From Flavobacterium flabelliforme (GTDB taxonomy: Bacteria > Bacteroidota > Bacteroidia > Flavobacteriales > Flavobacteriaceae): DNA of 64,000 bases. Positions 838 to 17,274 of the stretch are shown here, in pieces (position 1 is the stretch's first letter; each line of letters starts with the position of its first letter). Position numbers and translations under genes: made by a program. The notes beneath the pieces were generated by a model. It had not been told where the DNA came from, made no database searches, and was given only the letters and a program-made list of their open reading frames with translations. The stretch lies in the NCBI RefSeq assembly GCF_017948675.1, contig NZ_JAGFBU010000005.1, positions 62,001 to 126,000 on the forward strand. Direction: 5' to 3'.

Positions 838-1323
838 ATGAATCAATCCGTACACAATAAATTAGTTTCTTTCATTTGGTCAATTGCAGACGACTGCCTT
901 CGTGATGTTTACGTTCGTGGAAAATACCGCGATGTTATTTTACCAATGGTCGTTTTACGCCGACTAGATGCTTTGCTAGAACCTACTAAAGACGCTGTTA
1001 TGGAAGAACTCTCTTTTCAACGTGATGAAGCAGGTTTTACAGAATGGGACGAAAACGGATTACGGGCCGCTTCTGGTTACGTGTTTTACAATACTAGTGA
1101 GTGGACTTTACAACGCCTACACAATACCGCTACGAATAGTCAACAATTGCTACAAGCTAATTTCGAGGATTATCTAAATGGTTTTAGTGCCAATGTGAAA
1201 GAGATTATCGAGAAGTTTAAACTAAGAAGTCAAACACATGGCTGCAAAAGATGTGTTGCTAGATGTTTTGGAAAAATTTACTTCGCCCGACATAAACCTG
1301 ACTCCTTTCGAAAAATTAGATAG
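838..1323 (+). pseudogene. hsdM: Type I restriction enzyme methylase subunit, N-terminal fragment (frameshifted hsdM)
   Basis: This frame encodes the N-terminal helical domain of HsdM, including a DVYVRGKYRDVILPM stretch that is typical of the family and helps it bind HsdS and DNA. Family similarity stops at about residue 133 (EKFKLRSQT). The rest of the frame up to the stop at 1321-1323 is out-of-frame sequence. The natural continuation lies one frame over, starting at 1238. The shift fits a net +1 or -5 change near 1232-1240. I infer a small deletion in a CAAA-rich stretch, because relatives as I remember them carry a few extra residues between the RSQ and MAAKDVLLD motifs. No slippery heptamer is visible. 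Confidence 0.8.
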
Positions 1324-3181
1324 CAATGGTAGAAAATTACCAGCTCTTTCTAATCTCGGAATGGGTTATGTATTCGAAGAATTAATTCGAAAGTTCAACG
1401 AGGAAAATAATGAAGAAGCAGGAGAACACTTTACACCTCGTGAAGTAATTGATCTGATGACGCACATTATTTTTGATCCAATCAAAAACAATTTACCTCC
1501 TGTAATGACCATTTACGATCCCGCTTGTGGTAGTGGTGGAATGCTTACTGAAGCGCAAAATTTCATCAAAGACGAAGAGGGAGAAATTCGTGCAGTCAAT
1601 TCGGATGTGTATTTGTATGGAAAAGAAATCAACGACGAAACCTATGCCATCTGTAAATCAGATATGATGATTAAGGGAAATAATCCCGAAAATATCCGTG
1701 TGGGTTCTACACTTTCTACCGATGAATTTGCAGGAACCACTTTCGACTTTATGTTGTCCAATCCTCCTTATGGTAAATCCTGGGCAAGTGAGCAAAAATA
1801 TATCAAAGACGGAAAAGACGTGATTGACAGTCGTTTCCAAATCCAATTAAAAAACTATTGGGGAATAGAAGAAGCTGCCGATGCCATTCCGCGTTCATCT
1901 GACGGACAATTGTTGTTTCTAATGGAAATGGTCAGCAAAATGAAACCACTTTCGCAAAGTCCAAGAGGAACTCGTATTGCTTCGGTACATAATGGTAGTA
2001 GCTTGTTTACAGGCGATGCTGGCGGTGGCGAAAGCAACATTCGTCGGTACATTATCGAAAACGACTGCTTGGAAGCCATTGTACAATTACCCAACAACTT
2101 ATTTTACAATACTGGAATTACCACTTACATTTGGATTTTAAGCAACAACAAAGCCCCCAAACGCAAAGGAAAAGTACAACTCATTGATGCCGGACAATTG
2201 TTCCGAAAACTGCGAAAGAATTTAGGAAACAAAAACTGTGAGTTCGCACCTGAGCATATTACCAAAATTGTAAAAACCTACACTGATTTACAAGCAATAG
2301 AAAGAACCGAAAGCGAAGGTATTGCTTCCAAAGTATTTGACAATTCTGATTTTGGCTACCACAAAGTAACCATCGAAAGACCAAAACGCTTAAAAGCACA
2401 ATTCACAGCCGAGCGCATTGCCGAACTGCGTTTTGATAAAACGCTACGTGAAGCGATGGAACATTGCTATAAAACCTATGGCGAAGCTGTATATACCGAT
2501 ATAAAAACACACGAAAAAGCAATTACCGATTGGTGTGAAAAGCAAGAACTCAACCTCAACGCCAAACAATTAAAAGCGTTGACCACCGAGGCACTTTGGA
2601 AAAAACAATTGGATCTAATGACCTTGAGCCAGACTTTAATGAAGGCTATAGGAACCCAGGAATACAGTGATTTTAATAATTTTAAAGACAAAGTAGCGGC
2701 GGCGGTTAAAACCAATAAACTAAAAGTAAGTGCTTCTGAATTGAATGCTGTTTACAACGTTATTTCCTGCTACGATGCCGAAGCGGAAAAAGTAACGAAA
2801 AGTATCGTGAAACTAGCAGGCGACAAATTAAACCAACTTTTAGAAAAATTAGACTGTACCGAAAAAGAGTTGCCGAATTATGGCTTTTTTCCAACGGCCA
2901 AAAAAGGCGAATTCCTTACTTATGAAACCGAAAGCGATTTGCGTGATACCGAAAATGTACCATTAAAAGAACCGATTTACGACTACTTCCTACGTGAAGT
3001 ACAGCCGCACGTTTCCGAAGCTTGGATAAACCTTGATGCAACCAAAATTGGCTACGAAATAAGCTTTAATAAATATTTCTACCAACACAAACCCTTGCGT
3101 AGCATCTCAGAAGTAACCAAAGATATTTTGGACTTAGAGAAACAAAGTGACGGACTGATTGCAGAAATATTGGCTTTATAA
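1238..3181 (+). CDS. hsdM: Type I restriction-modification methylase subunit HsdM, catalytic part
   Basis: This is the N6-adenine methyltransferase core of the type I enzyme, which methylates the site chosen by HsdS and is needed for restriction as well. Motif I (DPACGSGG, about residues 94-101) binds S-adenosylmethionine, and motif IV is NPPY (about 175-178). The AGEHFTPREV segment before motif I is typical of HsdM. A long C-terminal region, about residues 380-647, is helical. ATG 1238 is only the first Met after the frameshift, so the intact gene would run from 838. If translation can start here, the product would lack the N-terminal helical domain, and its activity cannot be assumed. It opens an operon with yhcG, hsdS, two cargo genes and hsdR. 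Confidence 0.88.
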   Translation: MAAKDVLLDVLEKFTSPDINLTPFEKLDSNGRKLPALSNLGMGYVFEELIRKFNEENNEEAGEHFTPREVIDLMTHIIFDPIKNNLPPVMTIYDPACGSGGMLTEAQNFIKDEEGEIRAVNSDVYLYGKEINDETYAICKSDMMIKGNNPENIRVGSTLSTDEFAGTTFDFMLSNPPYGKSWASEQKYIKDGKDVIDSRFQIQLKNYWGIEEAADAIPRSSDGQLLFLMEMVSKMKPLSQSPRGTRIASVHNGSSLFTGDAGGGESNIRRYIIENDCLEAIVQLPNNLFYNTGITTYIWILSNNKAPKRKGKVQLIDAGQLFRKLRKNLGNKNCEFAPEHITKIVKTYTDLQAIERTESEGIASKVFDNSDFGYHKVTIERPKRLKAQFTAERIAELRFDKTLREAMEHCYKTYGEAVYTDIKTHEKAITDWCEKQELNLNAKQLKALTTEALWKKQLDLMTLSQTLMKAIGTQEYSDFNNFKDKVAAAVKTNKLKVSASELNAVYNVISCYDAEAEKVTKSIVKLAGDKLNQLLEKLDCTEKELPNYGFFPTAKKGEFLTYETESDLRDTENVPLKEPIYDYFLREVQPHVSEAWINLDATKIGYEISFNKYFYQHKPLRSISEVTKDILDLEKQSDGLIAEILAL

Positions 3182-3194
3182 ATAAAATTTCAGG

Positions 3195-4337
3195 ATGCAA
3201 ATACTAGATACCGAATACAAAGAATGGCTTTTTGAATTAAAATCAAAAATCCGTTCGTCTCAAATAAAAGCAGCAGTAGCGGTGAATGCCGCTTTGATTA
3301 ATTTCTATTGGGAATTAGGAAAAATGATTGCCGAAAAGCAAGAAACAGCCACTTGGGGGAATAAATTGATAGAGCAACTATCCTTAGATTTAAAAGAAGA
3401 ATTCCCAACAATGACGGGTTTTTCGAGTCGAAACCTCAAATATTGCCGTAGTTTCTATAATTTTTATAAAGATACAATTGTGCAACAAGCTGTTGCACAA
3501 TTGAAAAACACGAACGATCCATTTGGGCAACAAGCTGTTGCCCAATTACAAAACATACCAATTGTAAAAAGTCAACAAGCTGTTGACCAATTGAACGCCG
3601 AACTATTGACTCAAATTCCGTGGGGACATCACATCTACATTTTCACCAAATCAGAAAATGTAGAACAAGCCCAATTTTACATCCAACAAACCATAGAAAA
3701 CGCCTGGAGTCGCGATACTTTGGCCTTGCAAATCAAATCACAATTGTTTGCACGACAAGGGAAATCGATAACCAATTTCAAATATACCCTGCCAGAACCC
3801 TTGTCCGATTTGGCACAACAAACACTAAAAGACCCTTATGTTTTTGATTTTGTGGCGATGACTCCAAAAATGAAAGAACGCGATTTAGAAAAACAGTTGG
3901 TCACACAAATCTCAAAATTTTTATTGGAGCTCGGTAAAGGTTTTGCCTTTGTAGGGCAACAATACCCACTCGAAATTGGCGAAAAAGAATACTTTTTAGA
4001 TTTACTATTCTACCACATCAAACTCAAATGTTACGTGGTAATCGAATTAAAAAACACTGCCTTTATTCCTGAATACACAGGGAAAATGAATTTTTACCTC
4101 TCGGCAGTCGATACGCTTTTAAAACAAGAAGATGACAAACCCACCATAGGAATACTATTGTGCCGAGACAAAAACAACATCGAAGCCGAGTTTGCCTTGC
4201 GAGACATTAACAAACCCATAGGAATTAGTGAATTTTCGTTTACTGAAATACTACCCGAAGAACTAAAAAGTAGTTTACCTACTATCGAAGAAATTGAAAA
4301 AGAGTTACAAAACCGAATTGATACCACCGATGAATAA
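3195..4337 (+). CDS. yhcG: YhcG/DUF1016 family PD-(D/E)XK nuclease-like protein
   Basis: The N-terminal half (about residues 1-190) matches the DUF1016_N domain: INFYWELGKMI, then GFSSRNLKYCRSFY, then the PWGHHIYIF motif. The C-terminal half, about 220-360, is a PD-(D/E)XK nuclease fold with EKEYFLDLLFYH and VVIELKN supplying the Asp and the ExK. YhcG proteins often sit beside or inside type I restriction loci, and their exact job is not settled. The region just before PWGHH, about residues 94-137, carries three in-frame 15-residue repeats starting QQAV, encoded by palindromic DNA (separate entry). The gene lies 13 bp after hsdM and overlaps hsdS by 8 bp, so it is co-transcribed. Confidence 0.88.
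   Translation: MQILDTEYKEWLFELKSKIRSSQIKAAVAVNAALINFYWELGKMIAEKQETATWGNKLIEQLSLDLKEEFPTMTGFSSRNLKYCRSFYNFYKDTIVQQAVAQLKNTNDPFGQQAVAQLQNIPIVKSQQAVDQLNAELLTQIPWGHHIYIFTKSENVEQAQFYIQQTIENAWSRDTLALQIKSQLFARQGKSITNFKYTLPEPLSDLAQQTLKDPYVFDFVAMTPKMKERDLEKQLVTQISKFLLELGKGFAFVGQQYPLEIGEKEYFLDLLFYHIKLKCYVVIELKNTAFIPEYTGKMNFYLSAVDTLLKQEDDKPTIGILLCRDKNNIEAEFALRDINKPIGISEFSFTEILPEELKSSLPTIEEIEKELQNRIDTTDE
3475..3587 (+). repeat. Three in-frame 45-bp repeats with palindromic cores inside yhcG
   Basis: The core CAACAAGCTGTTG occurs three times with centres at 3489, 3534 and 3579, exactly 45 bp apart. Each is a perfect inverted repeat around an AGC loop. The arms are 13 bp (3475-3503), 10 bp (3523-3545) and 7 bp (3571-3587). 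The bases flanking the core change between copies but stay complementary: TG with CA, GG with CC, GT with AC. The encoded peptide is QQAVxQL each time. Confidence 0.9.
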
Positions 4338-5616
4338 TACCATTACAAAATTACAAGCTTATACATCTTACAAACCTTCTGGTGTGGAATGGCTGGGGGA
4401 TATTCCAGAGCATTGGGAAGTGAAGAAAGTATTTCACAATTTTAAAGCTGAAAAAGGTAAAAAAGCAGCCATTTTGACAAAAGAATTCTGTGGGAATATA
4501 AAAGGCAACTATCCAGTCTATAGTGGCCAAACCGAGAATAATGGTATAATGAGTTCAATTAACGAATTTGAATTTGATTTTAGTGAACAAGGATGTCTAT
4601 TTTCAACTACTGTTGGAGCTAAAGCAATGACTGTTAGCTATCTTCAAGGTAAATTTAGTTTGTCGCAGAATTGTATGATAATTATAAAAAGAAATCATAA
4701 TATTTTAAACAAATTCTTTTTTTATCATTTTCAGCCTTTGTTCTCATACTACAGAAGTTTAATTCCAGATCATATGCAAGCTTCATTTAGAATTGAAGAT
4801 TTATATCAATATAAATTCTTGCAACCACCATTTGAAGAACAAACCGCAATTGCTAAATTTCTAGACGATAAAACTGCCAAGATTGACCAAGCCATCGCCA
4901 TCAAGCAACAGCAAATAGACTTACTCAAAGAACGCAGGCAAATACTCATTCATAAAGCGGTTACTCAAGGGATTAATCCTGATATAAAACTAAAAGACAG
5001 CGGTGTAGAATGGATTGGAGAGATTCCTGAGCATTGGGAGGTGAAAAAATGCAAATATTTATTTGATGAGATAAATGATCGTTCTCAAACAGGAAAAGAA
5101 GAATTATTATCTGTTTCTCATATGACTGGAGTAACTCCTCGTTCAGAAAAAAATGTTTCCATGTTTCAATCTGAAGATTACACAGGTTCAAAATTATGCC
5201 AAAAAGATGATCTTGTTTATAACATAATGTGGGCTTGGATGGGAGCATTAGGTGTTTCTAAGCAAACTGGAATTGTTAGTCCTTCATACGCCGTTTATAG
5301 ACAGAAAACACAAAATTCCTTTAATGTTATTTTTTTAGAAAATCTTTTAGCTGGTATTAACTATGTAGAACATTATAATAAAGTGTCAACAGGTTTACAT
5401 TCGTCAAGACTAAGATTCTACTCCACAATGTTTTTTGAAATGCCAATTGCTTATCCATCAAAATATGAGCAGGATGACATTGTGGTATTTATAAAATCTT
5501 TGTCTACCAAAATCACTACAGCCATTTCATTAAAAGAGCAAGAGATTGAGAAGTTGAAGGAATATAAGAGTAGTTTGATAGATGGGGTGGTAACGGGGAA
5601 AGTTAGAGTATGTTAA
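4330..5616 (+). CDS. hsdS: Type I restriction-modification specificity subunit HsdS
   Basis: HsdS recognises the two halves of the target site and joins the methylase and nuclease subunits. The protein has the expected two-fold layout. A SGVEWLGDIPEHWEVKK segment at about residue 17 is repeated almost exactly as SGVEWIGEIPEHWEVKK at about 224. Each is followed by a variable target-recognition domain and a helical spacer (KIDQAIAIKQQQIDLLKERR and TAISLKEQEIEKLKEYK). The start at 4330 is preferred to an in-frame ATG at 4294, because it gives an 8-bp overlap with yhcG and begins just before the conserved region. Both recognition domains are more AT-rich than the conserved parts, as expected for exchanged modules. 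Confidence 0.93.
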   Translation: MNNTITKLQAYTSYKPSGVEWLGDIPEHWEVKKVFHNFKAEKGKKAAILTKEFCGNIKGNYPVYSGQTENNGIMSSINEFEFDFSEQGCLFSTTVGAKAMTVSYLQGKFSLSQNCMIIIKRNHNILNKFFFYHFQPLFSYYRSLIPDHMQASFRIEDLYQYKFLQPPFEEQTAIAKFLDDKTAKIDQAIAIKQQQIDLLKERRQILIHKAVTQGINPDIKLKDSGVEWIGEIPEHWEVKKCKYLFDEINDRSQTGKEELLSVSHMTGVTPRSEKNVSMFQSEDYTGSKLCQKDDLVYNIMWAWMGALGVSKQTGIVSPSYAVYRQKTQNSFNVIFLENLLAGINYVEHYNKVSTGLHSSRLRFYSTMFFEMPIAYPSKYEQDDIVVFIKSLSTKITTAISLKEQEIEKLKEYKSSLIDGVVTGKVRVC

Positions 5617-5633: not shown

Positions 5634-7379
5634 ATGAAGTTTATAGATATAGATAGTCTAAACATAACAACTGAACTAGACGTTCTGAAACGTGATACTC
5701 AGCGTAACAGTTTTTTCCTTTATCAGCATAAAGGTGTATTTTTTGCTGACAATACTCGTATTGGGAATAAGAACCAAAACGAAGCAAAAGAAAAGTTTAT
5801 CAGCGTCTTAAAAAAGGCAAAGGAAGAGCATATAGCACTAGTGTTATCTCCTGAATATTCTTGTCCAAAGTCTGTTATTGAAGAGATTATAGCTAATGAA
5901 GATTTGCAACCTTCACAGAATAAACTTTGGGCGTTAGGGGGCGAATCACTCAACAAAGTAGAATTAGATTCTTTAAGAGCAATAAACTATGAAAAATTGT
6001 ACATACATTTTGAAGATTGCTATACAACATCTGATAAAAATTATGTAGATCCTTTATATTATATTTTCAAAGGAAAACATGATGGTTTAGAAAAACTTAT
6101 TATTCTAATTCAGTTTAAAACTAGACATATGGGCGGTTTATGGTCTAGCCAAATAGAACCAGATAACTTAATAAAAGGTAGTACTGTCTATATTATCAAA
6201 AATAATAATCATTCTGTAAGACTAATGTCATTTATTTGTTCCGAAGCTATGAATTTTAATGCTCAATTTGAACAAGAACTAACAGATAATCATAGTTGGA
6301 TTGATTCCCCATACTTGATTTTGAGCCTGCAGTTTAATCCAAATCCATCTCACAATAACTTTATAGCATTTAAACAATTTTCATTAGCTAGAGAAAAAAG
6401 AGAACTATTAACTTTAAATTGGGGGATTGACACTACTTTTTTAAATGGAAAGTATTTGTATGAAGATAATAATGCTCCTAGAAGTGCTATATATTTTAAA
6501 ACAGTTGATACTGAGTTAGACTATAAACCTAAAAAAATTATTGATAATCATAATAAAGGTTTGTATTTCTTGCAAATTAAACGAAATAAACGCGTTTATT
6601 TTCTAAATAGAAATATTGAACTGTTTAAAATTCATAATAAATCAGTGCATATTATTGAAGGTGTTGATGAGCAACAAAGACGTGAAGGTCCTACGGTAAC
6701 TAATATCTATCATTTTGTTAATTCTATTGATTTAGAAGAAATTTCTATAGTTTCCGATAATCATATTGATTTTTTAAATGACAGAGGAGTTACTAATGCT
6801 TATTTATTAGATCCATTTAAATCATTCCTGGATAAAGAAAGATTGATTAATATATCTACAGGAAAAGTTAAAGGGAAAGAGGAAAGTAAATGGTCCGACG
6901 TCATACATTTGAATAGCTTTACATTAAATGAATCAGATGAATGTAATAACAGATTAACATACATAGAAGATACATTTAGTACTAGTGAAGCTGTAAGAAA
7001 TAGTAATTGTTCAAGTGTTGCAGAGTTAGACTGTAATATTTTACCAAACAACACTTTATATCCTCATAGTATAAAACATTTGGGGTATAAGGATTTACAA
7101 CTAGCATTTTCTGATAACGCTTGTGATTTTAATTATAGGTACAATGTTGTTAATCAAACAGGAGAAATTCAAAAAGCAACAATTTGTTACATTGGAAATG
7201 CTTCAGATAGGGAGGTAAAATCTACTTATGATGAATTACAAAAACTATTTGAAACAGGTACTCAAGGTAAAGATACAATTGTTGTTTATTACAAAAGAGG
7301 TTTAAATCTAGAGCAAAAATCTAATCCCCATGCTGGTTCATATACAGAAGTTCCAACAGATAACAATTCAATCTTTTAA
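5634..7379 (+). CDS. Nitrilase-fold (carbon-nitrogen hydrolase-like) protein in restriction operon, unknown function
   Basis: Residues about 25-290 look like a nitrilase/amidase fold. The catalytic triad can be placed at Glu74 (LVLSPEYS), Lys162 (IQFKTRH) and Cys202 (MSFICSEAM). The later NPNPSHNNF...AREKRELLTLNWG block matches the usual region after the cysteine. Residues about 300-581 match nothing I know. There is no signal peptide or membrane segment. The gene starts 17 bp after hsdS and ends 6 bp before a large ATPase gene, so it forms a unit with that gene inside the restriction operon. It is visibly more AT-rich than hsdM and hsdR, consistent with cargo acquired separately. Nitrilase domains occur in at least one anti-phage system (reverse transcriptase-nitrilase, DRT type 1). 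A defence role here is inference. Confidence 0.7.
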   Translation: MKFIDIDSLNITTELDVLKRDTQRNSFFLYQHKGVFFADNTRIGNKNQNEAKEKFISVLKKAKEEHIALVLSPEYSCPKSVIEEIIANEDLQPSQNKLWALGGESLNKVELDSLRAINYEKLYIHFEDCYTTSDKNYVDPLYYIFKGKHDGLEKLIILIQFKTRHMGGLWSSQIEPDNLIKGSTVYIIKNNNHSVRLMSFICSEAMNFNAQFEQELTDNHSWIDSPYLILSLQFNPNPSHNNFIAFKQFSLAREKRELLTLNWGIDTTFLNGKYLYEDNNAPRSAIYFKTVDTELDYKPKKIIDNHNKGLYFLQIKRNKRVYFLNRNIELFKIHNKSVHIIEGVDEQQRREGPTVTNIYHFVNSIDLEEISIVSDNHIDFLNDRGVTNAYLLDPFKSFLDKERLINISTGKVKGKEESKWSDVIHLNSFTLNESDECNNRLTYIEDTFSTSEAVRNSNCSSVAELDCNILPNNTLYPHSIKHLGYKDLQLAFSDNACDFNYRYNVVNQTGEIQKATICYIGNASDREVKSTYDELQKLFETGTQGKDTIVVYYKRGLNLEQKSNPHAGSYTEVPTDNNSIF

Positions 7380-7385
7380 ATTATT

Positions 7386-10300
7386 ATGAATACTCAACAA
7401 TTAATAGAACAATCACAAAAATTATTTACGCATTTTAAACCAGTAAATAAAGATCTATATAAAGGACAGCTAAATATTAATGATAAAGTTGCAGGTATTT
7501 ACTATTTAAATTTTGAACAGCAAATTTCAGAAGAGGACTTTGAAGAATTACAATATAAATATTTGGCAAATGAATTTTACAATCAAGAAGAAACACTACA
7601 ATGGAATATTTATTTGTTGTTTATAAATAGTAATATTTCTGAAGCTTTAAAAATAAAAATTCTAAGGGACGATAAATATGCAAGAAAATTGATATTTACC
7701 GGAGATGAATATTTAGATTATTTTGAATTAGAAACATCGAAAGCTAGTGAGCTACCAGATATTACTTCAGTTTGGAAAAGAGAATTAAACAAAGTTGGAT
7801 TACAAGAACTGTACAGTTCAGCTTCAAATGAGGGTATTGTTAAAAATTTTCTGAATGATAAATCACCAGAAATTGTTCAAGGACTAGAAAGAAGTTTAGA
7901 TCATATTCCTGTAGTAGAAAAGATAAATTCGATAAACTTAAATCAAGGATATAGACCATTTCCTAAAAAACGAGATTTCAATTTTGGAGATGTGAATTTA
8001 TTTACAGGGTCAAATGGTGTGGGTAAAACCAGTTTATTAGAATCTATAGAGTTAATTTTGACAGGAAAAACTCAGCGTAATGATCGTAAAGATGAAGCTC
8101 CTAATTCTATCACAGCAATTCTAAATGAAGATTTAAAAGACACTTATTCTCCTAATAATAGAATCTACAAAGAAAGAGGATCTAAATGGTACAATAGACG
8201 TCTTTCTGAACAAGGAAATAGAACTTTCGAATCATTTAATCAGTTTAACTTTTTTAATACGGATGCTGCCCATCAGTTTTCAAATGCCGAAGATGCTGGT
8301 GTAATTAATGAATCTTTAAAGCAAATTATTTTAGGAGAGGAATTCACAATTTTAAAAGATAAGATTGAAAAAATTAGACCAAGACTTCGAACGGAATTAA
8401 ATAAAGCTTCCAAAGAAATTAGTCAAAAATTGGATAATCTTAAAAAAAATAAAGATCGCATCAGTGAATTAAAAAACGATGAAAATTTTAGTGAACTAAA
8501 AGGAAACATTAAAGGGAACATGCTTAGCCTTGGATATAAAGCTATTTATGACGAATCCAATTATTCGGTTTCTGGTTTATTTGTCAACGAAATTAAAAAT
8601 GAATTAGATTTTATATTATCTAAGAAGGTAACAAATTTTAGTAAGTTTAAAGAAGTTAGTGGTATTGTTGAAACACGTAAAAATTTAGTTTCCGAAAACA
8701 AGGAAGCCTTTAATTTGAATATTGTAAAGTCAAATGAAAGTATTCTTGATAGACAAAAAAATAAAGATTTTCTTTCAAAAATTAATACCTTTTATAAATA
8801 TATTGAAATTGATAATTGTTCCAAAATTGAAGATTTAGCAATTAATTATAAAAAAATTGAGACGCAACTTTTAATAATAAAAACTTTAAAAGATTTAAAC
8901 AATTTACAGCTAGATATAGTGAAATTATCAGAAGAACGTAAATCACTTGCCGACTTAATATCATCTAAAAAATCTGTACTCGTAGATAAAACTATATCAC
9001 AAGGTGATTTAAAAGGTGAAATATCTCTTTTACAAAAAGGTTTTTCGGTAAATGAAGGGCTTATTATTGAACTAAAAACTATTGGAAGAAAAATTCTAAA
9101 CGATAAGTTTCATTCGAATCAATGCTGTCCGTTGTGTGATCAGGAAATTTCAAAAACAGAACTTTTATTAAGGCTAGATAATGATTTAATAAATGATGAT
9201 TTTAAAAATCTTATTAAAAGTAAGAATGATTTATTAGAAGTATTTAATAAGGAAATTGACCAACTAGAATTAGAAATAAAACACTTAAGGAGATATGAAA
9301 TGGTAGTCTCTGAATATTTAAAAGATTACGAAGATTTAGATCTTTCTCAAATAAATAATGCCATTAAAGAAAGGATTGCCAAGGAAAATGAAATTTTATC
9401 TGAAAAAGAATTGTATGATAAAATATTTTTCCAATTAAATAATATTGAGGGATCGATATCTGAGTTTTCTATTTTGAAATTGGCGTTACAAATGATATAC
9501 CCAAATGTTGATATTTTAAAAAAAGAAGTGTTAACTGAGATTATTGATAATCTTAAAATGCAAATAAATAAAAGTAGTACTGAAGTCGATAATTTTAAAG
9601 TAAGTAATGATAAAATAATAAATGATTTAAATGTTGCACTAAAATTATCGTCCTATGCTGATAGTTTTGATAAAATCGAGGAAATTATTAAATCAAATGA
9701 TAATTTAATCGATTCATTAAATTTCAGCTTTCAGAATTTAAATCGTTATTTAGATATTCCAACAGATAAAAGTATTATTGATTTATCAAAAGATTTAGCG
9801 CTTTTAAATAAAAATTTGAACACATTCAGACTAATTGAAAATAGTCAGAACGAAATAAAAAAACTTTTGACTTCAAATGAAGAAATTGAAAAGTCTTTTC
9901 CTGATCTAAAAACTTTAAATAGTAGACTAAATAAAGCTGTTGAAGTACTAGATAGGCTAAGCAATAATAGTGAAGACATAATATTAAAGGATTTCTTCAA
10001 AGATAATTTGATTGAAATAAAAGATATTTTTACGACAATACATTCTCCCAAAGAGTTTGAAAATATTGAATATTTATCTAACAAATTAGTTTTAATAAAA
10101 GGTGGTAAATCTTTTGAAATCTCACAAATCAGTACGGGGCAAAGAGCAGCTTTAGTTTTATCAATTTTTATAAGTTTAAATAGAAAATTAGAAAACGGTC
10201 CTAATATTTTGATTTTTGATGATCCAGTCACTTTCATAGACGATTTCAATGCCTTGTCATTTTTAGATTTTTTAAGATATTTTATTGTAAAAGAAAAAAA

Positions 10301-10403
10301 GCAAATATTTTTTGCTACCGCAAATAAAAAATTTTCATCATTATTTAAAAAGAAGTTTGAATTTTTAGGAGATGAATTTAAAGAATTTCAATTAGAAAGA
10401 TAA
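7386..10403 (+). CDS. Large SMC/RecF/SbcC-like ATPase with CxxC hook, restriction-operon cargo
   Basis: A 1005-residue P-loop ATPase of the SMC/Rad50 type. Walker A is GSNGVGKT at 208-215, the ABC signature is STGQRAA at about 916, and Walker B is NILIFDDPV at about 940. Between them lies a long stretch rich in Lys, Glu, Leu and Asn, predicted coiled coil, interrupted by CCPLCDQ (Cys581 and Cys584), which resembles a Rad50 zinc hook. The first ~190 residues precede Walker A and match no domain I can name. The N-terminal extension makes it unlike plain SbcC or RecN. RloC is another hook-bearing ATPase linked to type I systems, but I see no PrrC-like anticodon nuclease domain here. It lies 6 bp after the nitrilase gene and 4 bp before hsdR. 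Confidence 0.8.
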   Translation: MNTQQLIEQSQKLFTHFKPVNKDLYKGQLNINDKVAGIYYLNFEQQISEEDFEELQYKYLANEFYNQEETLQWNIYLLFINSNISEALKIKILRDDKYARKLIFTGDEYLDYFELETSKASELPDITSVWKRELNKVGLQELYSSASNEGIVKNFLNDKSPEIVQGLERSLDHIPVVEKINSINLNQGYRPFPKKRDFNFGDVNLFTGSNGVGKTSLLESIELILTGKTQRNDRKDEAPNSITAILNEDLKDTYSPNNRIYKERGSKWYNRRLSEQGNRTFESFNQFNFFNTDAAHQFSNAEDAGVINESLKQIILGEEFTILKDKIEKIRPRLRTELNKASKEISQKLDNLKKNKDRISELKNDENFSELKGNIKGNMLSLGYKAIYDESNYSVSGLFVNEIKNELDFILSKKVTNFSKFKEVSGIVETRKNLVSENKEAFNLNIVKSNESILDRQKNKDFLSKINTFYKYIEIDNCSKIEDLAINYKKIETQLLIIKTLKDLNNLQLDIVKLSEERKSLADLISSKKSVLVDKTISQGDLKGEISLLQKGFSVNEGLIIELKTIGRKILNDKFHSNQCCPLCDQEISKTELLLRLDNDLINDDFKNLIKSKNDLLEVFNKEIDQLELEIKHLRRYEMVVSEYLKDYEDLDLSQINNAIKERIAKENEILSEKELYDKIFFQLNNIEGSISEFSILKLALQMIYPNVDILKKEVLTEIIDNLKMQINKSSTEVDNFKVSNDKIINDLNVALKLSSYADSFDKIEEIIKSNDNLIDSLNFSFQNLNRYLDIPTDKSIIDLSKDLALLNKNLNTFRLIENSQNEIKKLLTSNEEIEKSFPDLKTLNSRLNKAVEVLDRLSNNSEDIILKDFFKDNLIEIKDIFTTIHSPKEFENIEYLSNKLVLIKGGKSFEISQISTGQRAALVLSIFISLNRKLENGPNILIFDDPVTFIDDFNALSFLDFLRYFIVKEKKQIFFATANKKFSSLFKKKFEFLGDEFKEFQLER

Positions 10404-10407
10404 AAAT

Positions 10408-13400
10408 ATGCCATCACAAACCAACGAACAAGCCTTAGAATCAGCAATAGAAAAAAAACTTACAGGCAGTTGCCTCGAAGAATTGAAAGCAGCTGGAACG
10501 ACAGTCGATAGCGTGAATGAGCGTTCCGAATTGTATCGTTCGGGCAATGGCTATTATATTGGTTCTACTAGTGATTTCAATGCTAAATATGCTATTGATG
10601 AGGTTCGTTTTTGGCATTTTTTAGAAACAACCCAAGCGGAGGAATTGGCAAAAATCCAAAAACAGAACGATTGGAAACTCAAAATCTTGGAGCGTTTGGA
10701 TCGTTTGGTTAAAAAATATGGCATCTTGCGTTTGCTTCGCAAAGGTTTGGAAGTTGATGATGCGCACTTTACTTTATTATATGTTTTGCCTTTAGCAAGT
10801 AGTAGTGCGGCTGCCAAAGCTAATTTTGAAAACAATGAATTTAGCGTTTCACGCCAAATCAGGTATTCTATAACCAATCCAGGAGAAGAAATTGATATGG
10901 TCATTTTTGTCAATGGGTTGGCTATTGCAACAATGGAACTCAAAAACCATTGGACAGGGCAAAATGCTAAAGTTCACGGACAGAATCAGTATAAATTTAA
11001 AAGAGATATTAGCCAACCCTTATTAAACTTTGGGCGTTGTATCGTGCATTTTGCAGTCGATACTGATGAGGTATATATGACAACAAAATTAGATGGCGCG
11101 GGAACATTTTTCCTCCCGTTTAATCTTGGACATAATTATGGCAAAGGGAATCCGCCGAATCCTTTCGGACATAAAACAGCGTATTTATGGGATGAAGTTT
11201 TAACCCGAGAAAGTCTGGCAAACATCATCCAGCATTTTGTGCGTTTTGATGGTAAAGAAAAAGATACCTTAAACAAAAAAACCTTGTTTTTTCCACGGTA
11301 TCACCAAATGAATGTGGTTCGAAAACTAATAGCCGATGCCAGTAAAAACGGTGTGGGACAAACCTATTTAATTCAACATTCTGCAGGTTCCGGAAAATCA
11401 AATTCAATCACTTGGGCAGCCTATCAATTAATAGAAACTTATCCTGAAACTGAAACGACTCCCGGAAGCCGTGGAATTACAAATCCATTGTTTGATTCGG
11501 TTATTGTGGTTACAGACAGACGATTACTAGACAAGCAATTAAGAGAGAATATCAAAGAATTTTCGGAAGTTAAAAATATTGTAGCTCCGGCTTATTCTTC
11601 CAAAGAATTAAAAGAAAGTTTAGAAAGTGGTAAACGAATAATTATTACAACAATTCAGAAATTCCCTTTCATAGTAGATGGAATAGCCGATTTAAGTGAT
11701 AAGCGTTTTGCCGTAATCATAGATGAAGCACATAGCAGTCAAAGTGGTTCAGCTGCCGATAATATGAACCGTGCAATGGGAAGCAATACTGTTGAGGAAG
11801 AAGAAGATCCCCAAGACAAAATTCTTGAAATCATGCGTTCTCGTAAAATGAGTAAGAATGCCTCTTATCTCGCTTTTACCGCTACTCCAAAATCAAATAC
11901 CTTAGAAAAGTTTGGTGAATTGCAAGAGGACGGAAAATTCAAACCGTTTCATTTGTATTCGATGAAACAAGCCATTGAAGAAGGTTTTATTTTGGATGTA
12001 TTAGCCAATTATACAACCTACAAAAGCTATTATGAAATAGAAAAATCGATAGAAGACAATCCCTTGTTTGACACCAACAAAGCGCAGAAAAAATTAAGAG
12101 CCTTTGTGGAACAGCACAAACAAACTATTGCCATAAAAGCTGATATTGCACTAGATCATTTTATTACTAAAATTGTTAATACCAAAAAGCTAAAAGGCAA
12201 GGCCAAAGCGATGGTTGCAACTCAAAGTATCGAATCGGCAATTCGTTATTTCTTTGCCATACAAAACATTCTAAAAGAAAAAGGGCAACCTTTTAAAGCG
12301 GCGATTGCTTTTTCGGGAAAGAAAACGGTCGATGGAATTGAATACAGTGAAGACAGCATTAATGGTTTTGCAGAAAAAGATACCCGAGATCAATTTGACA
12401 GTGAGGACTATAAAATATTAGTGGTGGCAAACAAATACCTAACAGGATTTGACCAGCCCAAACTAACAGCAATGTATGTGGATAAAAAACTGCAAGGTGT
12501 TTTAGCTGTTCAAGCATTATCAAGATTAAACCGCGCCGCTAATAAATTAGGAAAAAAGACAGAAGATTTATTTGTGCTGGATTTCTTCAATTCTACAGAC
12601 GAAATGAAAGAGGCATTCGACCCCTTTTATACAGCAACCTCATTAAACAAAGCTACTGACGTCAATGTACTGCACGAAATAAAGGCAACTTTAGACGATA
12701 TAGGCGTTTATGAATGGTCAGAAGTAGAAGATTTTGTAGATAAATATTTCAAAAAAGTAGATGCACAACTCCTAAGTCCAATTATTGATTTGGCCGCCGA
12801 CCGATTTAATTTTCAATTGGAATTAGAAGATAGCGACAAAGCCGATTTCAAAATCAAGGCCAAGCAGTTTGTCAAAATATACGGGCAGATGGCCTCAATC
12901 TTGCCTTATGAAGTGGTCAATTGGGAAAAATTATTCTGGTTTTTGAAATTTTTAATTCCAAAACTGATTATTGTTGATTCAAGTAGTGATGCCTTGGATG
13001 AATTATTAAATTCAGTCGATTTATCAACTTATGGTTTGGAAAGAGTGAAACTGAATGTCGGTATTGGTTTAGACGATTCGGAAACAGAATTAGACCCACA
13101 AAACCCAAATCCAAGAGGGGCACACGGAACAGAAAAAGACGAAAATCCTTTAGATTTAATTATCAACAGTTTCAATGAACGTTGGTTTCAAGGTTGGGAA
13201 GCTACACCAGAAGAGCAAAGGGTAAAATTTGTGAGTCTTGCCAAAAGCATACAAGCTCATCCGGATTATGTAGAAAAATATTCTGGAAATGCCGATGCAC
13301 AAAACAGAGAGATTGCATTTAAGAAAATATTTGAAGAGGTTATGGCGCAACAACGTAAAATAGAACTTGATTTATACAAAAAAGTGACCCAAGATGATGC

Positions 13401-13449
13401 TTTCAGAATCGCTATGCAAGATACTTTGAAAAGAATATTGAGTGTTTAA
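10408..13449 (+). CDS. hsdR: Type I restriction enzyme endonuclease/translocase subunit HsdR
   Basis: HsdR cuts unmodified DNA after ATP-driven translocation by the HsdRMS complex. An N-terminal PD-(D/E)XK nuclease is visible: GEEIDMVIFVNG, then ATMELKNHW, about residues 158-180, with Asp and ExK residues. The SF2 helicase motor follows, with HSAGSGKS (Walker A, about 324) and DEAHSSQSG (about 438), then AFTATPKS and, near the end of the motor, VLAVQALSRLNRA. At 1013 residues the length is normal. It follows the ATPase gene by 4 bp and ends the operon. The subunit looks intact, so the frameshift in hsdM decides whether the system works. Confidence 0.95.
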   Translation: MPSQTNEQALESAIEKKLTGSCLEELKAAGTTVDSVNERSELYRSGNGYYIGSTSDFNAKYAIDEVRFWHFLETTQAEELAKIQKQNDWKLKILERLDRLVKKYGILRLLRKGLEVDDAHFTLLYVLPLASSSAAAKANFENNEFSVSRQIRYSITNPGEEIDMVIFVNGLAIATMELKNHWTGQNAKVHGQNQYKFKRDISQPLLNFGRCIVHFAVDTDEVYMTTKLDGAGTFFLPFNLGHNYGKGNPPNPFGHKTAYLWDEVLTRESLANIIQHFVRFDGKEKDTLNKKTLFFPRYHQMNVVRKLIADASKNGVGQTYLIQHSAGSGKSNSITWAAYQLIETYPETETTPGSRGITNPLFDSVIVVTDRRLLDKQLRENIKEFSEVKNIVAPAYSSKELKESLESGKRIIITTIQKFPFIVDGIADLSDKRFAVIIDEAHSSQSGSAADNMNRAMGSNTVEEEEDPQDKILEIMRSRKMSKNASYLAFTATPKSNTLEKFGELQEDGKFKPFHLYSMKQAIEEGFILDVLANYTTYKSYYEIEKSIEDNPLFDTNKAQKKLRAFVEQHKQTIAIKADIALDHFITKIVNTKKLKGKAKAMVATQSIESAIRYFFAIQNILKEKGQPFKAAIAFSGKKTVDGIEYSEDSINGFAEKDTRDQFDSEDYKILVVANKYLTGFDQPKLTAMYVDKKLQGVLAVQALSRLNRAANKLGKKTEDLFVLDFFNSTDEMKEAFDPFYTATSLNKATDVNVLHEIKATLDDIGVYEWSEVEDFVDKYFKKVDAQLLSPIIDLAADRFNFQLELEDSDKADFKIKAKQFVKIYGQMASILPYEVVNWEKLFWFLKFLIPKLIIVDSSSDALDELLNSVDLSTYGLERVKLNVGIGLDDSETELDPQNPNPRGAHGTEKDENPLDLIINSFNERWFQGWEATPEEQRVKFVSLAKSIQAHPDYVEKYSGNADAQNREIAFKKIFEEVMAQQRKIELDLYKKVTQDDAFRIAMQDTLKRILSV

Positions 13450-13965: not shown

Positions 13966-15207
13966 ATGAAGTTATTTACTTTACTTTTTTCATTTCTTGC
14001 AATTATATCTTTCGGATTTGCTATTTACTATTTTTTTGAAAGGAATAATAATTCAGTTAAAAACACTCAAAAGAAAAGTTCAATTATAATTGTCTCCCTA
14101 GTGCTATTAGCTTTCAGCTCTTACCTATTGGCAATTTCTTTAGATTTAACTAATGAATTTATTATTAACACCAATCTTTTTACAGCAGATTATGCGAAAA
14201 TTGGTCCATACGGTGATTTGATCGGAGGTATAATGAATCCAATAGTCGCTTTTATTGGAATCATAGCTGCATCCTTAGCTTTTTATGTGCAATATGTTGC
14301 TAATAAGCAAGTGCAGAATGAATTCAAAATTCAGCAGTTTGAAAGCCAATTTTACGAAATGCTAAAACTCATTAAAGAAGAAATCAGTACAATTTATTTG
14401 CCATTAAATAACGGTGATACATTATTGGGCAGAAAGGTATTTTATGAACTTGATAAAGAAATTAAATTAATATATTTCATAGTTGACAATATACTTGCCA
14501 CTAATATTATAAAAATAAAAATTGAAATAGCATACTATATCTTTTATAGGGGTAGGTTGAAATACTATAATAGAATTAATTATTTTAAGGACAAATATAA
14601 TTTAGACCTAAATGAATTATTAGAAATTGAATTATTTTTGTCTTCTATTTACGAATTTTTAAAAAGCAATACTGATCATACAATTGATATTCCAACTGAA
14701 GTCATATTAGATAATGTTTTAGATGGTTTAAACGGAGGAGGTAGATTAAATGATTTACTAGATTTAGATGCAAACTACCATTTCGCATATCTCTTATTGA
14801 AAAACAATGAAAATCTTAATTTAAATCACCTTCCTTTTAAAGGGATGGAAACTAAACTATCATTGATATTGAGGCAGTTGTTTTCATTAGTAAAATTTGT
14901 AGCTAACGTAAATACAATTAACTATTTAGAAAAACGTAATTATTTAAGGGTATTGCGTTCGATATTATCAAATTACGAACAACTCCATATTTTCTATAAT
15001 TGGTATTCTGGTACAGGCTCACAATGGGAGGACAATAAAAATAAATTTTTAACTGATTATAGAATGATCCATAATTTACCTCCTGATTTTTTAATTGAAG
15101 GATTAGACTTAGAAACTATTTTCACTAATAGAAATTTTGAATATGAAGAAAATAGGAAATTAGACGATTCATTATTTGAACAAATTGAAATATTTAGTGT
15201 CAAATAA
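13966..15207 (+). CDS. Putative phage abortive-infection protein, AbiC-like, membrane-anchored
   Basis: The N-terminus has three hydrophobic segments at about residues 3-23, 39-59 and 91-110. Between the second and third is a YAKIGPYGDLIGGIMNPIVAF motif, followed by FYVQY...EFKIQQFESQFYEMLKLIKEEI. This arrangement is the hallmark of the putative AbiC family (putAbiC, PF16872 from memory). The rest, to residue 413, is a helix-rich cytoplasmic domain. Members are thought to act in phage exclusion, but the mechanism is not known. It stands alone, 516 bp after hsdR, between the restriction operon and the TcmP pair, which strengthens a defence assignment. It is AT-rich. Confidence 0.72.
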   Translation: MKLFTLLFSFLAIISFGFAIYYFFERNNNSVKNTQKKSSIIIVSLVLLAFSSYLLAISLDLTNEFIINTNLFTADYAKIGPYGDLIGGIMNPIVAFIGIIAASLAFYVQYVANKQVQNEFKIQQFESQFYEMLKLIKEEISTIYLPLNNGDTLLGRKVFYELDKEIKLIYFIVDNILATNIIKIKIEIAYYIFYRGRLKYYNRINYFKDKYNLDLNELLEIELFLSSIYEFLKSNTDHTIDIPTEVILDNVLDGLNGGGRLNDLLDLDANYHFAYLLLKNNENLNLNHLPFKGMETKLSLILRQLFSLVKFVANVNTINYLEKRNYLRVLRSILSNYEQLHIFYNWYSGTGSQWEDNKNKFLTDYRMIHNLPPDFLIEGLDLETIFTNRNFEYEENRKLDDSLFEQIEIFSVK

Positions 15208-15428
15208 TATTTGCAATATAAACATTGAATATTTAGTAAGATTCGAGTATTCTTTTAAATTACAAGAATAAGATTTATAATTAGTAAAACTCCTAGAACT
15301 CTTTTTGATGGCATAAAAATTAATATTATATTTTCCCATTTACATAATGAAAAAAAACAAAAAGGATAAGCTGAATTTTTTTAAAAATAGAATTAACTAT
15401 ATTTATTAAAAAATTAATTTTAATAAAT

Positions 15429-16556
15429 ATGAAAGATTCTCAAATAAACCCTTACGAGCACTCTGATATTAAAGTAAAGCTTTTAAAACTTTATTTAGAA
15501 AAGTATATAAATATACTGGCTTTAGCAAAAGGTGTTACTACCGTTGAAGTATATGATTTGTTTTGTGGAGAAGGTATTTATAGTAACGGTAAAGAAGGGA
15601 GTCCAGTCATCATTTTAAGATTGATTAAGGATATTTATTATAAGGCTAAGAAAAACTCTAACGTTAAGTTTAATTGTAATTTTAATGATTTCAATAGCGA
15701 AAAAACAGTTAAGCTTTCCAATTATATTTCTGAAAAAAAAATGCACTATTCAGAGATGGGTACTTTAAATTATTACAATGAAGACTATCAAATATTAAAA
15801 GATAAAATTGTAAAAGCCCATAAAGTAAAAGGGGCTAAAAGATTTATTTTCATAGATCCATATGGCTATAAAAACATTAGTGTTGGTGACATAGAAGGAT
15901 TACTTTCAGATAAAAATACAGAGGTATTGTTGTTTCTTCCGACACAGTTTATGTATAGATTTGAAAAAAAATCTACACCAGAAAGTTTATATAATTTTTT
16001 GGCTGAAGTAATGCCTGAAGAAGAGCAAGGTATGAGCAGTTCAGGTGTTGATTTTATTCATAAATTAAGAGATGGTTTTGGAAATAAGTTGAAAGGAAAG
16101 CATTATGTAGATTCCTTTATTATTACAAGGAATATTAATGAATTTTTCGCACTTTACTTTTTCACCAGTCATTTATATGGCTTTGAAAAATTTTTAGAAG
16201 CAAAATGGAGTATTGATGAAGAAGAAGGTCGTGGCTGGAGTCCTAAATTTGAAGAGGTTGATTTGTTTTCAACTATTGAAGTTCATGCAAAAACAAATAA
16301 ATTTGAAGAAAATTTAATAACTTTTTTGTCACAATTGCGTTCTAATATTGAAATACATCATTTTACTATTGAAAATAGACATCTTACAACTCATACAGTT
16401 CAAATTTTAAAAAAAATACAAAATTCAAATAATTTGATTGTAAATAATACAGATAGAAGTAAACCAAGAAAAGGAGCTTTCTATATTGGTTGGAATGAAG
16501 TGAAAACAAAAACGGTTAAATGTTTTATTAAATACGAAAATAATGGCACAATCTAG
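15429..16556 (+). CDS. tcmP: Three-Cys-motif partner protein TcmP
   Basis: The protein begins with a KVKLLKLYLEKYINIL helix and a VEVYDLFCGEGIYSNGKEGSPVIIL block, then later RFIFIDPYGYKN. These are typical of TcmP, the protein that travels with Gp37/Gp68 (three-Cys-motif) proteins. The DLFCGEG and FIDPYG motifs suggest a methyltransferase-like Rossmann fold. No activity has been established for the family as far as I know. Its last 14 bases overlap the three-Cys-motif gene, indicating coupled translation and joint function. It lies in the defence island and is AT-rich. Confidence 0.85.
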   Translation: MKDSQINPYEHSDIKVKLLKLYLEKYINILALAKGVTTVEVYDLFCGEGIYSNGKEGSPVIILRLIKDIYYKAKKNSNVKFNCNFNDFNSEKTVKLSNYISEKKMHYSEMGTLNYYNEDYQILKDKIVKAHKVKGAKRFIFIDPYGYKNISVGDIEGLLSDKNTEVLLFLPTQFMYRFEKKSTPESLYNFLAEVMPEEEQGMSSSGVDFIHKLRDGFGNKLKGKHYVDSFIITRNINEFFALYFFTSHLYGFEKFLEAKWSIDEEEGRGWSPKFEEVDLFSTIEVHAKTNKFEENLITFLSQLRSNIEIHHFTIENRHLTTHTVQILKKIQNSNNLIVNNTDRSKPRKGAFYIGWNEVKTKTVKCFIKYENNGTI

Positions 16557-17274
16557 TATAGAATGGACAGAAATGACTTGGAATCCAACAACTGGATGTA
16601 CCAAAATATCTGCTGGTTGTAAGTTTTGTTATGCCGAGGTAATGTCGAAACGACTTAAAGCAATGGGTGTTGAAAAATATAAGGACAATTTCAAAGTGAG
16701 AATTCACGAACCTTCATTAAAAATACCTTATACTTGGAAATCTCCTAAAGTTGTTTTTGTAAATTCAATGAGCGATTTATTCCACGAAGAAATACCATTA
16801 GAATACATTCAAAAAGTATTCAAAGTAATGAACGATAATCCACAACACGTTTTTCAAGTTTTAACCAAAAGAGCTGAAAGACTTTTTGAAGTGCACAAAA
16901 AACTTAATTGGACACATAATATTTGGATGGGAGTTTCTGTAGAAGATGAAAGAGTAACTGATCGTATAGATTATTTGAGAAAAACTAAAGCTCATACTAA
17001 ATTTTTATCTTTAGAGCCGTTAATAGGTGCTTTACCTAATCTTGATTTAAAAAAAATGAATTGGGTTATCGTTGGTGGAGAAAGTGGACCAAAAGCTAGA
17101 CCAATGGATGAAGATTGGGTTTTAGATATTTATGAGCAGTGTAAAAAAGCCAAAGTTTCATTTTTCTTCAAACAATGGGGTGGTAAAAATAAAAAGGCAT
17201 CAGGACGATTACTTAATGGTAGAACCTATGATGAAATGCCAAGAATTATGGAAATTGAAAGTGGTGCAAAATAA
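16543..17274 (+). CDS. Three-Cys-motif protein, phage Gp37/Gp68 (DUF5131) family
   Basis: The N-terminal signature IEWTEMTWNPTTGC is followed by Cys19-X6-Cys26-X2-Cys29 (KFCYAE), which gives the family its three-Cys name. The spacing recalls, but does not equal, the CX3CX2C of radical-SAM enzymes. Other family blocks are present: FVNSMSDLFHEEIP, VFQVLTKRAERL, WMGVSVED, FLSLEPLIG, WVIVGGESGPKARPM and FFFKQWGG. At 243 residues the length is normal. Its start overlaps tcmP by 14 bp. The family occurs in phages and in bacterial mobile regions; function is unknown, and an iron-sulfur or metal-dependent activity is inference. Confidence 0.88.
   Translation: MAQSSIEWTEMTWNPTTGCTKISAGCKFCYAEVMSKRLKAMGVEKYKDNFKVRIHEPSLKIPYTWKSPKVVFVNSMSDLFHEEIPLEYIQKVFKVMNDNPQHVFQVLTKRAERLFEVHKKLNWTHNIWMGVSVEDERVTDRIDYLRKTKAHTKFLSLEPLIGALPNLDLKKMNWVIVGGESGPKARPMDEDWVLDIYEQCKKAKVSFFFKQWGGKNKKASGRLLNGRTYDEMPRIMEIESGAK

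What the first reader, a model, noticed from the sequence alone, without database searches (positions are those of the whole stretch)
5634..10403. Nitrilase-fold protein plus SMC-like ATPase embedded in a type I restriction operon: candidate undescribed defence module
Seen: two genes 6 bp apart sit between hsdS and hsdR, with tight spacing on both sides (17 bp and 4 bp). The first has a nitrilase-like Glu74-Lys162-Cys202 triad and an unassigned 280-residue C-terminal part. The second is a 1005-aa ATPase with a CxxC hook and a 190-residue N-terminal extension. Both look more AT-rich than the surrounding hsd genes. Known: restriction operons often carry extra defence genes (PrrC and RloC are linked to type I systems), and nitrilase domains appear in DRT type 1. 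Inference: the ATPase senses invading or restricted DNA and switches on the nitrilase-like enzyme, perhaps against a cell metabolite, acting when restriction fails.
Basis: partly seen in the sequence, partly recalled or inferred. Interest (0 to 1): 0.8.

Follow-up and report, generated by a model that had tools for sequence, protein, structure and literature searches.

The report
Nitrilase-type defence pair inside restriction operon
Two neighbouring genes inside a DNA-restriction operon look like a little-known variant of a known bacterial alarm system, in which a DNA-sensing protein is predicted to switch on a nitrilase-like enzyme that harms the infected cell; related operons carry other known defence systems in the same slot.

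Summary
Between hsdS and hsdR lie a 581-aa protein (NitA) and a 1005-aa ATPase. The pair is a real module: in all 13 loci found (Bacteroidota, proteobacteria, haloarchaeal plasmids, a phage-like contig) NitA is followed by the ATPase, once split across two contigs; the two proteins' distances correlate (r=0.89). NitA's model has a nitrilase fold, and Glu74, Lys162 and Cys202 are invariant and align with the catalytic residues of C-N hydrolases.

The ATPase's 190-residue extension matches Middle Component 1 (MC1) of ABC-three-component (ABC-3C, Lamassu-superfamily) systems. Canonical MC1 operons have the same order: effector, MC1, Rad50-like ATPase. A review already lists 'C-N hydrolase' among Lamassu effectors, so this is a new variant of a known kind.

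New context: in other genera of the family the same hsdS-hsdR slot is empty or holds Menshen, TmtA or GmrSD-like genes, so it looks like a defence hotspot. Likely mechanism (inferred): the ATPase senses DNA ends or aberrant DNA and frees NitA, which oligomerises and attacks an amide-bearing metabolite. Substrate and anti-phage activity are untested. hsdM here reads as frameshifted.

The parts
838..3181 (+). hsdM, in two overlapping frames (frameshifted relative to L007 HsdM)
3195..4337 (+). YhcG/DUF1016 PDDEXK protein (PADLOC PDC-S02), between hsdM and hsdS
4294..5616 (+). hsdS
5634..7379 (+). NitA: putative effector with nitrilase-type domain
5688..6695 (+). nitrilase-fold domain of NitA (about residues 19-354); Glu74 codon 5853-5855, Lys162 codon 6117-6119, Glu175 codon 6156-6158, Cys202 codon 6237-6239
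6696..7376 (+). C-terminal part of NitA (about residues 355-581), no known family; putative docking part (inferred)
7386..10403 (+). Rad50-like ABC ATPase with fused middle component: putative sensor
7386..7940 (+). N-terminal extension of the ATPase; MComp1 (PF20289) match at 7551-7736
8007..8030 (+). Walker A GSNGVGKT (residues 208-215)
9126..9137 (+). CPLC hook (residues 581-584)
10131..10226 (+). signature STGQ (916-919) and Walker B ILIFDDP (941-947)
10408..13449 (+). hsdR

Best explanation
NitA plus the ATPase form a two-gene member of the ABC-3C/Lamassu superfamily. The ATPase is a Rad50-like coiled-coil sensor carrying its middle component (MC1) as an N-terminal domain. NitA is the effector: a nitrilase-superfamily (C-N hydrolase) catalytic domain and a C-terminal part that probably docks onto MC1 and the ATPase. 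Shown here: pairing, predicted fold, invariant catalytic residues, MC1 match, gene order, and placement in a slot that holds known defence families in related operons. Inferred from the Lamassu precedent: (1) the ATPase complex holds NitA inactive; (2) DNA ends or aberrant DNA structures of a phage or plasmid, possibly including ends made by restriction, engage the ATPase; (3) NitA is released and oligomerises, which nitrilases generally need for activity; (4) it hydrolyses an amide or related C-N bond in an essential metabolite, so that the infected cell stops growing or dies. The substrate is unknown.
For: Pairing: the ATPase gene directly follows NitA in 12 of 13 loci on one contig, and in the 13th across two contig ends; distance matrices of the two proteins correlate, r=0.894, permutation p=0.0001, 12 loci; the ATPase query found 4 plasmid records, all four holding NitA too. 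Effector: 36 Foldseek hits at E<=0.001, and the 39 best-ranked are nitrilase-superfamily proteins or NAD synthetase with such a domain (superfamily of some titles recalled); second look Z up to 15.8, rmsd 3.9 over 233 residues; catalytic residues invariant and aligned with those of 14 C-N hydrolases. Middle component: PF20289 in 9 of 12 extensions at E<=1, best 4.3e-7; over the curated cut-off in the window's own genome (27.7 against 27.3) and in L011 (30.1). ATPase: LmuB profile E 9.9e-24; hhalign to the ATPases of five canonical MC1 operons E 3e-24 over 89 columns. Same order effector, MC1, ATPase in those five operons. Context: Hachiman, a canonical ABC-3C trio, a phage-like contig, and the hsd slot with Menshen, TmtA and GmrSD families. 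Precedents: LmuA liberated and forming a homotetramer (PMC12409362, passage); DNA-end and hairpin sensing by Lamassu (PMC12904381, passages); nitrilase domain active through assembly in DRT1 (PMC13275509, passages).
Against: NitA's C-terminal part matches no known ABC-3C C-terminal domain. Window NitA has no match in PADLOC, Pfam, NCBIfam or PHROGs. The MC1 match is borderline: 24.7 bits on the window fragment, 22.5 in L002 and 15.9 in L004, 26.4 in L010's genome, no match in L003; hhalign of the extension with five MC1 proteins was not significant (P 0.33). The profile link of NitA to C-N hydrolases is weak (P 3e-4 local, 9e-4 global). The NitA model is of modest confidence (mean pLDDT 60.7) and the ATPase model poor (65.5, pTM 0.38). 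L006 and L010 show no recognised defence neighbour. No complex was modelled and no activity measured.
Confidence: 0.72

Rival explanations
1. Toxin-antitoxin-like module: NitA is a toxin held by the ATPase, kept mainly for its own maintenance on plasmids and islands, with no specific sensing of phage DNA.
For: Two tightly spaced genes in 13 of 13 loci; four loci on plasmids; sporadic distribution.
Against: The partner is a large Rad50-like ATPase with hook and MC1-like domain, as in ABC-3C/Lamassu sensors, not a small antitoxin; it sits in a slot with defence families.
Confidence: 0.1
2. Restriction-coupled accessory: in hsd operons the module depends on HsdR-made DNA ends as its signal and serves as back-up when restriction fails.
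For: Nesting between hsdS and hsdR in two loci; Lamassu is reported to sense DNA ends (PMC12904381, passages).
Against: 11 of 13 loci show no hsd operon in the flanks read; unrelated systems use the same slot; hsdM reads as frameshifted here.
Confidence: 0.12
3. A DNA-repair or metabolic pair: Rad50-like repair protein with a housekeeping nitrilase.
For: The ATPase head resembles Rad50; plasmid records carry a double-strand-break-repair GO term; L006 and L010 lie among chromosomal genes with no defence gene recognised by eye.
Against: Rare and scattered over two domains of life; defence and mobile contexts; no match of NitA to any housekeeping C-N hydrolase profile.
Confidence: 0.04

Closest known systems
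ABC-3C systems with Middle Component 1 (canonical operons L038, L058-L061)
   Same: Rad50-like ATPase with CxxC and, in bacterial members, DDP Walker B; MC1; order effector, MC1, ATPase
   Different: MC1 is fused to the ATPase; the effector is nitrilase-type, whereas the canonical effector scanned (L038) carries CTD1; NitA's C-terminal part is unrelated by profile
Lamassu (LmuA, LmuB, LmuC; DdmABC)
   Same: The ATPase matches LmuB profiles; effector-plus-SMC-like-sensor plan; 'C-N hydrolase' is listed among effector types (PMC10586767, section 9)
   Different: PADLOC LmuA models hardly touch NitA (1 of 11 members at E 0.029; 0 of 9 homologues); the ATPase is longer and holds an MC1 domain. Whether the listed C-N hydrolase effectors are this family could not be checked: primary papers not held
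DRT1 (reverse transcriptase-nitrilase)
   Same: A nitrilase domain in an anti-phage system (PMC13275509, passages)
   Different: DRT1 is a reverse transcriptase with a nitrilase domain; no reverse transcriptase here
PrrC and RloC
   Same: Defence proteins linked to type I restriction (recalled)
   Different: No anticodon-nuclease family appeared in the scans; the effector here is a separate nitrilase-type protein

Membership tests
ABC-3C / Lamassu superfamily | Rad50/SMC-like ABC ATPase with Walker A, signature, Walker B and often a CxxC hook | tested here: met
   hhalign E 3e-24 to ATPases of canonical MC1 operons
ABC-3C / Lamassu superfamily | middle component (MC/LmuC) | tested here: met
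   as a fused N-terminal domain, borderline scores: PF20289 in 9 of 12 extensions at E<=1; 27.7 bits against cut-off 27.3 in the window's genome but 24.7 on the fragment; 30.1 in L011
ABC-3C / Lamassu superfamily | effector gene with N-terminal enzymatic domain, first in the operon | tested here: met
   nitrilase fold N-terminal; NitA upstream of the ATPase in 13 of 13 loci, one across a contig break
ABC-3C / Lamassu superfamily | effector carries an ABC-3C C-terminal docking domain | tested here: inconclusive
   a C-terminal part of about 225 aa exists; no Pfam hit in three members, no hhalign match to CTD1-type effectors; other CTD families not compared by hhalign
ABC-3C / Lamassu superfamily | anti-phage or anti-plasmid activity requiring effector and ATP-binding sites | not testable with these tools
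   needs bench work
Nitrilase (C-N hydrolase) superfamily | nitrilase fold | tested here: met
   model good for residues 1-160, moderate to about 380
Nitrilase (C-N hydrolase) superfamily | Glu-Lys-Cys catalytic triad | tested here: met
   invariant; aligned with residues invariant in 14 of 14 C-N hydrolases
Nitrilase (C-N hydrolase) superfamily | recognised by the family's sequence profile | tested here: inconclusive
   no PF00795 hit; weak hhalign match only: at best a very divergent member
Menshen (NsnABC) | NsnA, NsnB and NsnC homologues | tested here: not met
   no Nsn model matches either protein, while the same models recognise Menshen in L079 and L081
DRT1 | reverse transcriptase domain | tested here: not met
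   no such Pfam domain in NitA or the ATPase
PrrC/RloC | anticodon nuclease domain | tested here: inconclusive
   none among the matches; I did not check that these libraries hold a model of that domain

The most novel reading that the evidence does not exclude
The hsdS-hsdR junction of these type I operons is a socket for second-line systems wired to restriction: DNA ends made by HsdR on invading DNA are the signal that the MC1-ATPase reads, so that a cell in which restriction starts but fails goes on to a nitrilase-mediated shutdown that uses a substrate not yet seen in immunity.
Probability: 0.15. Interest if true: 0.8.

Novelty: new variant of a known kind. Interest (0 to 1): 0.52.

Why it matters
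[quoted passage not shown] A second lineage with a nitrilase-type effector, under a Rad50-like sensor and spread over bacteria and haloarchaea, gives a second route to that question. The hsdS-hsdR slot, which holds interchangeable defence families in orthologous operons, is a way to find more systems and to test whether embedded modules cooperate with restriction.

Tried and rejected
Rejected readings. 'Categorically new': the ATPase and its extension match ABC-3C/Lamassu profiles and a review lists C-N hydrolase effectors. Housekeeping pair: rare, and mostly in defence or mobile contexts, although L006 and L010 lie among chromosomal genes where I recognised no defence gene by eye (their neighbours were not scanned). 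Menshen, DRT1, PrrC/RloC: see the membership rows.

What led nowhere or went against the reading. A single-sequence scan of genome contigs found nothing; the alignment scan gave 5 loci. Phage records: none. NitA profile against PDB sequences: four weak matches, best E 0.011 to a designed TPR protein, taken as chance. hhalign of the extension with five MC1 proteins (P 0.33) and of NitA's C-terminal part with CTD1 effectors (P 0.73). A first extraction of C-N hydrolase ORFs took wrong frames (redone, where 14 of the 16 loci gave usable ORFs). PF20289 in the phylum: 4 of 296 genomes at E<=0.001, 2 over the cut-off, 0 of 14 control genomes; of the four, L039 and L040 showed no ABC-3C operon by eye and look like chance hits, so matches near the cut-off need operon context. 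PF20289 in the class of G596: 1 of 274 (G596 itself, under the cut-off). The structural second look at the ATPase put Rad50 and SMC heads on top (Z up to 11.8, rmsd 7.7 over 282) and tests residues 198-1005 only; a Lamassu LmuACB entry stands at rank 45. Six of seven viral loci from the ATPase profile matched only about 30-61 residues around Walker A and were dropped. PADLOC LmuA touched 1 of 11 NitA members at E 0.029.

Limits. Slot: 15 of 149 genomes had a close HsdR; besides the window I read 7 of the other 14, four at 74-76% identity and three at 44-48%; the other seven were not read. Krishnan et al. 2020 (ABC-3C, recalled) and Haudiquet et al. 2025 are not held. Paper searches made.
Full report
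What is there. The two ORFs are as described: NitA 5634-7379, 581 aa; ATPase 7386-10403, 1005 aa; gaps to hsdS, to each other and to hsdR are 17, 6 and 4 bp, and GC is 0.29 and 0.254 against 0.33-0.39 for the hsd genes. The operon is hsdM, a YhcG/DUF1016 gene, hsdS, NitA, ATPase, hsdR. hsdM is in two overlapping frames; against the intact homologue in L007, one frame matches residues 1-133 and the next frame residues 129-782, so the gene is frameshifted in this assembly. Downstream lie a putAbiC-domain gene and a TcmP gene.

The pair recurs. Homologues of NitA were found in 12 further loci: a Polaromonas plasmid, three haloarchaeal plasmids, five species genomes, one phage-like contig, one more genome of the window's phylum and one more of the order of G595, the genome of the Janthinobacterium locus L009. 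In 12 of 13 loci, the window included, the ATPase gene follows directly. In the 13th (L009) the NitA gene ends with its contig, and the ATPase begins a second contig of that genome, whose first bases encode a NitA-like C terminus. In L010 the ATPase is truncated (872 aa, a stop inside the wider match). Distances between the two genes are -8 to +16 bp; in L086, called here by longest ORF, the genes overlap by 170 bases. Distance matrices of the two proteins over 12 loci correlate at r=0.894 (permutation p=0.0001). The ATPase query found 4 plasmid records, the same four that hold NitA. The system is rare: 1 of 246 genomes of the order (single-sequence query), 2 of 395 of the phylum and 2 of 300 of the order of G595, each count including the genome the search started from; 4 of 72,556 plasmid records; 0 of 50,697 phage records.

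NitA is a nitrilase-type protein. No library used here names window NitA. The AlphaFold model is good for about residues 1-160, moderate to about 380 and unreliable after that. Foldseek returns 36 PDB hits at E<=0.001, nitrilase-superfamily proteins or an NAD synthetase with such a domain; in the second look the 50 rows shown have Z 13.3-15.8 with 210-240 residues aligned, too close together to choose a subfamily. Glu74, Lys162, Cys202 and also Glu175 are invariant in 11 of 11 rows and 12 of 12 rows. A forced global profile alignment, weak as a whole (P 9e-4), puts the triad on the Glu, Lys and Cys that are invariant in 14 of 14 C-N hydrolases taken from four genomes.

The ATPase is an MC1-ATPase fusion of the ABC-3C type. 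Its head matches Rad50 in the PDB (E 4.7e-13) and LmuB in PADLOC (E 9.9e-24). Its N-terminal extension matches Pfam MComp1, the Middle Component 1 of ABC-three-component systems: 24.7 bits on the fragment, 27.7 in the genome search, cut-off 27.3; 9 of 12 extensions match at E<=1, best 4.3e-7. Five canonical MC1 operons (L038, L058-L061) have separate effector, MC1 (218-283 aa) and ATPase (756-809 aa) genes in that order; in four of them the record names the middle gene 'ABC-three component system middle component 1'. MC1 plus ATPase adds up to about the length of the fusion. Their ATPases align with ours at hhalign E 3e-24 over 89 columns around the signature and Walker B. The second acidic residue of Walker B is Asp in the six bacterial or phage-contig members with an intact C terminus and in all five canonical MC1 ATPases, and Glu in the three haloarchaeal members (ten members examined, L010 truncated).

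The slot. Of 149 genomes of the family, 15 have a close HsdR. Besides the window I read the operons of 7 of the other 14. Between hsdS and hsdR, L077 and L083 have nothing; L078 and L082 have two GmrSD/DUF262 genes each; L079 has Menshen nsnA, nsnB and nsnC; L080 has a TmtA gene (system name Tiamat recalled); L081 has a small gene, a RhuM-like gene, nsnA and nsnB and a further gene not scanned. L007 has NitA-ATPase plus a DUF4062/HATPase_c_4 gene. Elsewhere the pair sits near Hachiman (L002), directly before a canonical ABC-3C trio CTD7-MC3-DUF3732 (L008), on haloarchaeal plasmids near nuclease and helicase genes, and in a contig with integrase, terminase, portal and capsid genes (L011).

A mosaic. 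Window and L007 share 64-85% DNA identity over NitA and the MC1/N-lobe part of the ATPase (5634 to about 8180), then 90-99% to the end of the ATPase, and 92% protein identity in HsdR. Against L006 the pattern differs: NitA 70%, MC1 part about 57-72%, coil mostly 33-57%, C-terminal head up to 95%. NitA and MC1 thus look exchanged as a block, which fits a functional contact between them, but recombination alone would also give it.

How it probably works. The Lamassu review gives the plan: an LmuA effector with variable enzymatic N terminus and a C-terminal part that may dock, a middle component lacking in some systems, and a Rad50-like sensor; 'C-N hydrolase' is on its list of effector types (PMC10586767: passages, section 9). 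LmuA is reported to be liberated on activation and to form a homotetramer (PMC12409362, passage); hairpin and DNA-end sensing are reported for Lamassu (PMC12904381, passages). Nitrilases are described as needing homo-oligomeric assembly, and monomeric DRT1 gives no defence (PMC13275509, passages). The simplest model is therefore sensing of DNA ends or structures, release and oligomerisation of NitA, and hydrolysis of an amide-type metabolite. Everything after 'the pair is an ABC-3C/Lamassu-type module with a nitrilase-type effector' is inference.

Novelty. A new variant of a known kind: MC1 fused to the ATPase, an effector too divergent for the libraries used here, and residence in an hsdS-hsdR hotspot. 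I could not check whether the C-N hydrolase effectors listed earlier are this family.

Noticed in passing
838-3181: hsdM reads as two overlapping ORFs and is frameshifted relative to the intact homologue in L007; real, or an assembly error.
   Followed up: partly
L077-L083, between hsdS and hsdR: The hsdS-hsdR junction of type I operons in the window's family is a defence slot: empty (2 of 7 read), GmrSD-like pairs (2), Menshen (2), TmtA (1).
   Followed up: partly
3195-4337: A YhcG/DUF1016 PDDEXK gene (PADLOC PDC-S02) sits between hsdM and hsdS; in L007 the same place holds a RhuM-family gene.
   Followed up: no
13966-17274: Downstream of hsdR lie a putAbiC-domain gene and a TcmP gene (PADLOC PDC-M30A) overlapping a further ORF at 16543-17274: probably more of the same defence island.
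   Followed up: no
5634-10403: Sharp step in identity to L007 at about 8180, inside the ATPase gene: NitA, MC1 and N-lobe divergent, coil and C-lobe nearly identical.
   Followed up: partly
L008:1295-5887 and L008:15152-18917: In Paraburkholderia ginsengiterrae the pair has an E2/ThiF/JAB fusion and a patatin gene upstream and a canonical ABC-3C trio downstream.
   Followed up: partly
L007:14825-16369: A protein with DUF4062, HATPase_c_4 and Fic-like C-terminal domains sits between the NitA-ATPase pair and hsdR.
   Followed up: no
L010:11698-14316: The Pseudomonas ATPase lacks its C-terminal head (872 aa, no signature or Walker B), so that copy is probably inactive.
   Followed up: no
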